DNA of 64,000 nucleotides from Engraulis encrasicolus. Lineage: Eukaryota > Chordata > Actinopteri > Clupeiformes > Engraulidae. Numbering within the stretch: position 1 is the first letter of the stretch; each line of letters begins with the position of its first letter. Both the position numbers and the translations under genes were made by a program. The notes under the pieces were generated by a model. The model was not told the origin of the DNA. It did not search any database and saw only the letters and a program-made list of their open reading frames with translations. Shown piece by piece: positions 13,801-15,475 of the stretch. Location: contig NC_085861.1 of NCBI RefSeq assembly GCF_034702125.1, positions 50,084,295 through 50,148,294 of the forward strand. The letters are read 5' to 3'.

Positions 13801-15475
13801 GTGTGCTGTGAAGTGCTGTGTCACAATGACAATGGGAGTTGGAGTTTCCCAGTTGGGCTTTCACTTCACAAGTTGTAGGATGCACATGGTCAAAGCGGAA
13901 GGGTATCCTACCTTGTTTCTGTGAATGTAGTAGAGGCCATTTAACATCATCTGCATGACCTTTTTGATCTCAGCCAGGGTGAACTTGACACGAACATTGC
14001 TGAGCAAGCCTGCCAGGTCGTGTTCACAGAACTCAAACACCAGGTATATACTACCCTTGTAGCGGTTGAACTGAGTAGCTGCGATGAGAAACATGACGTC
14101 AAGCAGGAGACAGACAAACATACAAAGCAGAGGCACAACACACTGTGGCTCTGCTCACATGTATAAGGGCATTTTCGTAAACAATTCATTCTTTTAAAAA
14201 CAAGCCATCCCTTTTGTTTAAGCTATGCATGTAAAATGCTATGTAGGCCTAAATCTTGAATTAAAACCATGTTTTACTCAGCAATGAATTGGGCAGTAGC
14301 CTACTACAGGCCCAGGGGTTGTAAACACACAAAGAGAAGTAAAAAGGTATGGGTCATTTACTTTTAGTCCTACATATTTCGATCAAGTTCACCACATTTT
14401 CATGCTTGAGGAGCTACAATATCTTGATTTCACGAAGAGCGGTAATGGGAAACTAAAAAGAAAATGTAGAAAGGCAAACTATTAGCATACACATACCACA
14501 ATTGTTTTCCCCCTGCCTTTGCATACAGTGTAATAATGAATATGAAACTGGATTGTAATGGACAGTATTACCCCTTCTCTCTCATTTTCCATGAGCACTT
14601 TTTTCAATGCCACTTTTACCCCAGTCTCCTGGTGTTTGGCTTTGAACACCTCCCTAAAACCCACAGATGACCAGAGTCAGATACCAAATATGGCTTTCAT
14701 TTAAAATAGTTGTATAACTTGGCATAGCCAAACAAAATGGGGGAAGCATTGCAGTGCACAGGTTTTTGGATACAAGGGATGTCATGTCATCAGATGCAGC
14801 AACTGAAGGCTACGTAGCCTACTGCGAAAAGAGAGGCAGTGGGGTGTTGATGGCCAGTGTAGCAGCTAATTTGTGACACGAAGGGGCATGGGTCCCAGGT
14901 AGTTGAATCAGAGCTAGAACTTAAGGCACTTTGAACTACACCTAGATCACAATGTAGCCCATGATTACAAATCAAATTGTAATCCAATTTAAGCGTACAT
15001 TATCACCATACCAACAACAGCAACAGTGATTGGACCCATTCTGTACTTGTTTTGATAAATAAAGTGGATTTGACAGGCTAACGCTAATCCTAGTCTAAAA
15101 TGGGATAGCTTACAAAACCAGCAAGTACAACAAGACTTATTATGCTCGTCCACAAATAAGACGTACCCAAATGTCCCCTGTCCAATTTTTGCAATCCTCT
15201 CATACTTCGAAACTTCATTACAGAAAGGAAACTCGACCCCATCATAGTACTTCGACATCATGGAGACAACATCTCGCTCCGGTCTGTGGACACAATTTGG
15301 TGAGGGTGAAAAGTTGCACGTGCCGAACTTTCAAATTTCATTAATGTAATAACAAAAGGCAGTTACTGTAGGTGCTAATAACTTTCTAAAGCCATGTTTC
15401 ATACTTGCTATCACCGCTGCCATCGGAGCTTGCTCCTTTATCTCGCTGTATCTTTGGCTTTTTCGGATCATCCAT
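10810..15475 (-). CDS. cdk9: Cyclin-dependent kinase 9, carrying one in-frame stop in exon 3
   Basis: Cdk9 with cyclin T forms P-TEFb, a nuclear kinase that phosphorylates the RNA polymerase II C-terminal domain and DSIF/NELF to release paused polymerase. Core exons are 15261-15167, 14653-14572, 14452-14362, 14078-13912, 12972-12810, 12649-12501 and 11193-10810. All introns are GT-AG and the phases fit. From ATG 15261 they encode 376 codons, against 372 in human. Visible marks are the glycine loop IGQGTFGEV (26-34), VALKK with catalytic Lys49, PITALRE (61-67), HRD (148-150), DFG (168-170), T-loop NRYTNRVV with activating Thr184, and the C-terminal tail ending FDRVF. Codon 72 (14414-14416) is TAG where the family has Gln (CAG); everything after it is conserved. 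A further exon, 15475-15405, joins in phase to 15283 and would add 31 residues starting MDDPKKPKIQRDKG. Identity is certain; whether this copy is functional is not. Confidence 0.93.
11194..11705. other. cdk9 intron 6, distal part
   Basis: Intronic sequence next to the last exon, with nothing recognisable beyond a weak purine/pyrimidine patch. It leads into the TTAA-flanked palindromic element. Confidence 0.6.
11706..12131. mobile_element. Palindromic TTAA-type MITE, copy 1 (cdk9 intron)
   Basis: The left half (CTTCAGTCAATTTCAACATG ... TTTACATTTCAAAA) is mirrored by the right half (ATGTAAACAAAAGCTGCCCC ... CATATTGAAAATGG), ending TCCTTTAA. The two arms of nearly 200 bp make the whole element a potential hairpin. 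Two relatives are in the window (18,748 and 26,309). TTAA ends suggest piggyBac- or Kolobok-type mobilisation. A 16-base G run lies at about 11,779. Confidence 0.75.
12363..12478. repeat. Small palindrome enclosing telomere-like TTAGGG units
   Basis: The arms are about 22 bp, GGCCCTTTCGGTACTTACGTC and its mirrored copy GACGTAAGTACGAAAAGGGC. Between them is TTTAGGGTTAGGTTTAGGGT at 12,421-12,440. It lies in cdk9 intron 6, just before exon 6. Confidence 0.8.
13627..13868 (+). repeat. tRNA-derived SINE, family A, copy 3 (headless)
   Basis: It matches the body and tail of the family from GGTTGGTGGGGGGAGT to CCCAGTTGGGCTTTCAC but lacks the tRNA-like head, so it is 5' truncated. It lies in cdk9 intron 4, about 45 bp before exon 4 on the gene strand's downstream side. 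The rest of this intron (12,973-13,626) shows no recognisable element. Confidence 0.8.

What the first reader, a model, noticed from the sequence alone, without database searches (positions are those of the whole stretch)
14414..14416. In-frame stop codon in otherwise intact cdk9
Exon 3 (14452-14362) reads FPITALREIKIL, stop, LLKHENVVNLIEICRTK. The stop is TAG where the family has CAG (Gln), a single C-to-T change. Every other exon is open, correctly spliced and conserved, including lysine 49, HRD, DFG and the T-loop. Cdk9 is essential, so a true null cannot be the only copy. It may be a sequencing error, a recessive null allele in the sequenced fish, or the start of decay after duplication.
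Basis: partly seen in the sequence, partly recalled or inferred. Interest (0 to 1): 0.75.

Follow-up and report, generated by a model that had tools for sequence, protein, structure and literature searches.

The report
Anchovy cdk9 copy with premature stop
A European anchovy gene for the transcription kinase Cdk9 carries an early stop codon, but it is an unusually fast-changing copy, so it is most likely a spare duplicate in early decay rather than loss of an essential gene.

Summary
The stop is there. On the minus strand, TAG at 14416-14414 is codon 103 of 408 in a hand-built 8-exon cdk9 model (15475-10810). All 14 splice sites are GT-AG and the other 7 exons are open. The 120 homologues listed all have Gln there. 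The neighbour rrp15 is 100% identical to RRP15-like of Engraulis encrasicolus, so the window is European anchovy.

This is not an ordinary cdk9. It is 84.2-89.4% identical to 8 teleost Cdk9s that share 94.3-98.7% with each other. It differs at 29 of 337 sites invariant in those 8, and its T-loop is three residues shorter. It lies beside rrp15, preb and an adenylyl cyclase. The neighbour rrp15 is not accelerated in anchovy.

Best reading: a duplicated cdk9, long under relaxed purifying selection, now carrying a null allele. No second anchovy cdk9 was seen, because the own-genome search did not complete (17 tries). Assembly error, or a segregating null in a sole fast-evolving copy, remain open. 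Ordinary biology; interest low.

The parts
15405..15475 (-). cdk9 exon 1: upstream start ATG, MDDPKKPKIQRDK... (the canonical MQRDK start Met reads Ile here)
15167..15283 (-). cdk9 exon 2, holds the internal MSKYYDG start of the short form
14572..14653 (-). cdk9 exon 3, holds the catalytic lysine (VALKK)
14362..14452 (-). cdk9 exon 4 (91 nt), PITALRE helix and the stop
14414..14416 (-). in-frame TAG, codon 103 of 408, where the family has Gln
13912..14078 (-). cdk9 exon 5
12810..12972 (-). cdk9 exon 6: HRD, DFG, shortened T-loop (three residues fewer)
12501..12649 (-). cdk9 exon 7
10810..11193 (-). cdk9 exon 8 with its own stop codon; C-terminal insertion (LTQQQQLQM region)
16940..20609 (-). 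neighbour rrp15; its joined later exons (292 of 309 residues) are 100% identical to RRP15-like of Engraulis encrasicolus, which names the species

Best explanation
This is a duplicate of cdk9 in the European anchovy, made with its introns and sitting next to rrp15, away from where cdk9 lies in other teleosts. It evolved fast but under purifying selection for most of its life. It then took a nonsense mutation (CAG to TAG inferred) just after the PITALRE helix. Its mRNA should be a target of nonsense-mediated decay, because four exon junctions lie downstream. Any protein would end before the rest of the kinase domain. An intact cdk9 elsewhere in the genome is inferred to supply the essential function. 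Shown: the stop, the open remainder, the divergence, the species. Inferred: the duplication, the second copy, the decay of the mRNA, and that the allele is real.
For: Stop and gene model. Divergence: 84.2-89.4% to 8 teleost Cdk9s that share 94.3-98.7% with one another, and 84.5% to Pongo Cdk9, to which those teleosts show 88.8-90.0%. Tree end branch 0.13 against 0-0.04 in 12 canonical teleost rows; two more teleost rows have 0.077 (Gymnothorax) and 0.052 (Dissostichus mawsoni). Not seen in the neighbour: anchovy RRP15 is as close to 16 outgroups (63.6%) as Coilia, Sardina and Alosa are (63.7, 62.4, 63.7). Other fish have two cdk9 genes or a fast cdk9-like gene: Lampris has two; also Salminus, Nelusetta and Gouania. 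cdk9 and rrp15 lie on contigs of different length in 6 of 6 species with one-contig rows for both: Lampris (two cdk9), Gymnothorax, Salminus, Dissostichus mawsoni, Tachysurus, Myxocyprinus; the last two rows stand for larger clusters. A guppy model joins Cdk9 to a leucine-rich-repeat protein that I recall as Lrsam1. No row named E. encrasicolus and no row above 81% identity was among the 120 listed of 496 hits for the C-terminal region, although anchovy RRP15 is in the same database; this is expected if the locus is annotated as non-coding. One lesion where about 9 would be expected had the copy been neutral all along, P about 0.001, and 22 of 29 changes with BLOSUM62 of 0 or more.
Against: No second anchovy cdk9 was seen; the own-genome search did not complete (17 tries). 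Only one disabling change, so a segregating allele or an error looks much the same; on stops alone the deficit against neutrality is not significant (P 0.30). Protein clusters at 90% identity hide individual clupeiform Cdk9s, so the lists do not show whether herrings or anchovy have a canonical one. Distant outgroups also differ at the 285 invariant sites (lamprey 14, a shark 10), so 17 is high for a teleost but not unmatched. The tree puts the window row outside the other teleosts with weak support (84/76), so the age and origin of the copy are unknown. The Salminus row concerns a fast cdk9-like copy, not the canonical gene.
Confidence: 0.58

Rival explanations
1. Assembly or consensus error: the true base gives Gln and the gene is an intact, fast-evolving cdk9 copy.
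For: The likely assembly (IST_EnEncr_1.0) was built from PacBio CLR reads with wtdbg2 and polished with Illumina reads; its authors note the higher error rate of CLR (passages). Everything else in the gene is open.
Against: Three rounds of short-read polishing should leave few substitution errors (general knowledge; no quality value was seen). Mis-polishing with reads of an intact paralogue would pull the base towards CAG, not TAG (inference). The joined exons of neighbour rrp15 are open too, though its database match may come from this same assembly.
Confidence: 0.2
2. A segregating recessive null in the only cdk9 of the species, caught in the heterozygous state in one wild female and laid into the consensus.
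For: The likely assembly is one female caught by a research vessel (passages of PMC13403563); large outbred populations carry many recessive nulls (established knowledge). The copy shows signs of past purifying selection.
Against: The protein is too diverged for a sole teleost cdk9, and its place beside rrp15 is unlike 6 other teleosts. A given essential gene has a low prior chance of holding a null in one haplotype (inference).
Confidence: 0.15
3. The stop is bypassed: read through, or removed by splicing to the AG of the TAG itself, which would drop exactly 39 nt in frame.
For: Exon 4 has an AG ending at its base 39, in frame.
Against: That splice would remove the PITALRE helix that binds cyclin T (established knowledge), so no normal Cdk9 would result. 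Skipping all of exon 4 (91 nt) breaks the frame. Readthrough signals were not tested.
Confidence: 0.04

Closest known systems
Canonical teleost cdk9 (Siphateles, Brienomyrus, Anabas and others)
   Same: Same kinase domain, related QRDK...MSKYYDG N-terminus, catalytic motifs kept
   Different: 84-89% identity only, T-loop three residues shorter, C-terminal insertion, stop at codon 103, next to rrp15
Divergent cdk9-like copies of teleosts (Lampris, Salminus, Nelusetta, Gouania)
   Same: Longer end branches than the canonical teleost rows
   Different: Those are listed as proteins, so open in their records; the window copy does not group with them in a weakly supported tree, and they may be separate duplications
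Duplicated pseudogenes in early decay (general kind, from knowledge)
   Same: Single nonsense change in a gene that keeps its introns, splice sites and remaining frame
   Different: Whether an intact parent exists and whether the change is fixed in the species are unknown

Membership tests
CDK9 (P-TEFb kinase) | Best sequence match to CDK9 rather than to other CDKs | tested here: met
   12 CDK9 chain sequences at 632-705 bits, next CDK12/13 at about 314 bits
CDK9 (P-TEFb kinase) | PITALRE helix, catalytic Lys, HRD, DFG, T-loop Thr motif | tested here: met
   T-loop shorter by three residues
CDK9 (P-TEFb kinase) | Full-length open kinase domain | tested here: not met
   TAG at codon 103
Duplicated pseudogene | Disabling lesion in a recognisable gene with introns | tested here: met
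   on the sequence as assembled
Duplicated pseudogene | An intact parent elsewhere in the same genome | tested here: inconclusive
   The genome search did not complete (17 tries)
Duplicated pseudogene | Lesion real and fixed in the species | not testable with these tools
   no reads or population data

The most novel reading that the evidence does not exclude
Anchovies keep a second, distinct Cdk9 kinase with a shortened activation loop, shaped by selection for its own role, and it now segregates as functional and null alleles in wild populations.
Probability: 0.15. Interest if true: 0.4.

Novelty: new member of a known kind. Interest (0 to 1): 0.2.

Why it matters
If right, it is a plain case of a spare copy of an essential gene caught soon after losing its function (0.6-3.1 million years expected to a first lesion for assumed mutation rates of 1e-8 to 2e-9). 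It also warns annotators not to read this locus as the anchovy Cdk9. It does not challenge the view that Cdk9 is essential.

Tried and rejected
Exon skipping as rescue: exon 4 is 91 nt and its loss breaks the frame. A second cdk9 within the window: tblastn of one canonical Cdk9 (P0002) gave hits only inside this gene. Structured RNA around the gene: no Rfam match at gathering score in 10000-20500. Literature on duplicated fish cdk9: searches gave nothing on the point (listings only); the anchovy ovary paper PMC10420382 holds no mention of cdk9 in its main text (term search). One search, for an Engraulis japonicus genome paper, listed none. First naming of the downstream cyclase as ADCY9 was dropped: Pfam gives AC_N, the one PDB match is adenylate cyclase 5, and ADCY3 is my recall.

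Rows dropped: of the 120 homologues listed, I chose 32 by hand for the alignment. Of those, 14 served as the canonical set, 7 were tested against it and 11 (fragmentary or odd models, outgroups and others) were left out of the invariant set; 4 of those 11 plus Lepisosteus, Dissostichus mawsoni, Gouania and Saccoglossus rows were used again in the tree (29 homologues and the window). One of the 14 (P0043) has a broken T-loop model, so invariant sites there are undercounted. The 8 teleosts are part of the 14. The best-scoring row, a 612-residue sea louse model (P0001, 64% identity), was not used.

Full report
Observation. The window's minus strand holds an 8-exon cdk9 model: 15475-15405, 15283-15167, 14653-14572, 14452-14362, 14078-13912, 12972-12810, 12649-12501, 11193-10810. 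I set the exon ends by hand; all 14 splice sites are GT-AG, and the only in-frame stop before the natural end is TAG at 14416-14414, codon 103 of 408. The 120 homologues listed (of 7987 found) all have Gln there: 116 by motif and the remaining 4 on reading. The best PDB matches are 12 CDK9 chain sequences at 632-705 bits, against about 314 for CDK12/13.

Species. The gene upstream is rrp15. Its joined exons (without the short first one) are 100% identical to RRP15-like protein of Engraulis encrasicolus; the next best row is Coilia, 83% over 68% of the query. The likely assembly is IST_EnEncr_1.0 (GCF_034702125.1): one female, PacBio CLR with three rounds of Illumina polishing, annotated by NCBI with 538 pseudogenes (PMC13403563: passages, section 13); its Black Sea origin comes from a passage of PMC12585885. 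That the window comes from this very assembly is inferred.

It is a fast copy. Eight canonical teleost Cdk9s share 94.3-98.7% identity; the window protein shares 84.2-89.4% with them and 84.5% with Pongo, to which those teleosts show 88.8-90.0%. It differs at 17 of 285 sites invariant in 14 vertebrates; at the same sites Lampris shows 10 and 20 in its two copies, Salminus 28, Nelusetta 30, a shark 10, the lungfish 3 and the lamprey 14. It differs at 29 of 337 sites invariant in the 8 teleosts, 22 of the 29 with BLOSUM62 of 0 or more. The T-loop lacks three residues and the C-terminus has an insertion. Its tree branch is 0.13. Twelve canonical teleost rows have 0-0.04, Gymnothorax 0.077 and D. 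mawsoni 0.052. The cdk9-like copies of Salminus, Nelusetta and Gouania have 0.17, 0.2 and 0.46, and the two Lampris copies 0.044 and 0.058. The neighbour rrp15 is not accelerated in anchovy relative to Coilia, Sardina and Alosa; one gene is a thin control.

Place. The neighbours are rrp15, preb (best PDB match 5tf2) and an adenylyl cyclase (AC_N). In 6 of 6 species with one-contig rows for both genes, the contigs that hold cdk9 and rrp15 differ in length: Lampris (both cdk9 copies), Gymnothorax, Salminus, Dissostichus mawsoni, Tachysurus and Myxocyprinus. The last two rows stand for larger clusters, and the Salminus row is a fast cdk9-like copy. A guppy model fuses Cdk9 with a leucine-rich-repeat protein that I recall as Lrsam1, a neighbour of CDK9 in man by recall. 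This copy therefore seems out of its usual place; no clupeiform was available for comparison.

History of selection. With a branch of 0.13, a copy neutral throughout would be expected to carry about 9 disabling changes (stops, frameshifts, splice losses); it has one, P about 0.001. On stops alone the deficit is not significant (P 0.30). The estimate assumes indels at a tenth of the substitution rate. So constraint was lost late, or the stop is not a fixed change at all.

Annotation. A search with residues 275-407 listed 120 of 496 hits: none was named E. encrasicolus and none was closer than 81%, although the same database holds anchovy RRP15. Only proteins of about 224-712 residues were candidates. 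This fits a pseudogene label at this locus but does not prove it.

Outcome. Mouse Cdk9 knockouts die as embryos (passages of PMC5105078), so a true sole null could hardly be homozygous. The likely solution is an intact cdk9 elsewhere. I could not look for it: the same own-genome request did not complete 17 times. The claim therefore rests on divergence, location and the lack of a listed coding record, and stays at about 0.58.

Noticed in passing
39931-41529, + strand: 533-codon open frame with a reverse transcriptase domain (RVT_1, then ALKBH8_N), a LINE-like element by inference.
   Followed up: partly
about 32000-27100, - strand: preb exons; four joined pieces match 5tf2, prolactin regulatory element-binding protein.
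   Followed up: partly
50887-51657, + strand: Exon of a membrane adenylyl cyclase (AC_N); by recall most like the start of ADCY3.
   Followed up: partly
14362 and 14416-14414, - strand: Last base of exon 4 is A where the family's Ala codon would imply G if the intron phase is shared, a slightly weaker donor (inference); and the TAG can also be read as an in-frame AG acceptor at exon base 39.
   Followed up: partly
15475-15449, - strand: The canonical start Met (MQRDK) is Ile (ATA) here; an upstream in-frame ATG gives MDDPKKPKIQRDK.
   Followed up: partly
about 16830-16570 and other places: Very long CA/TG dinucleotide runs.
   Followed up: no
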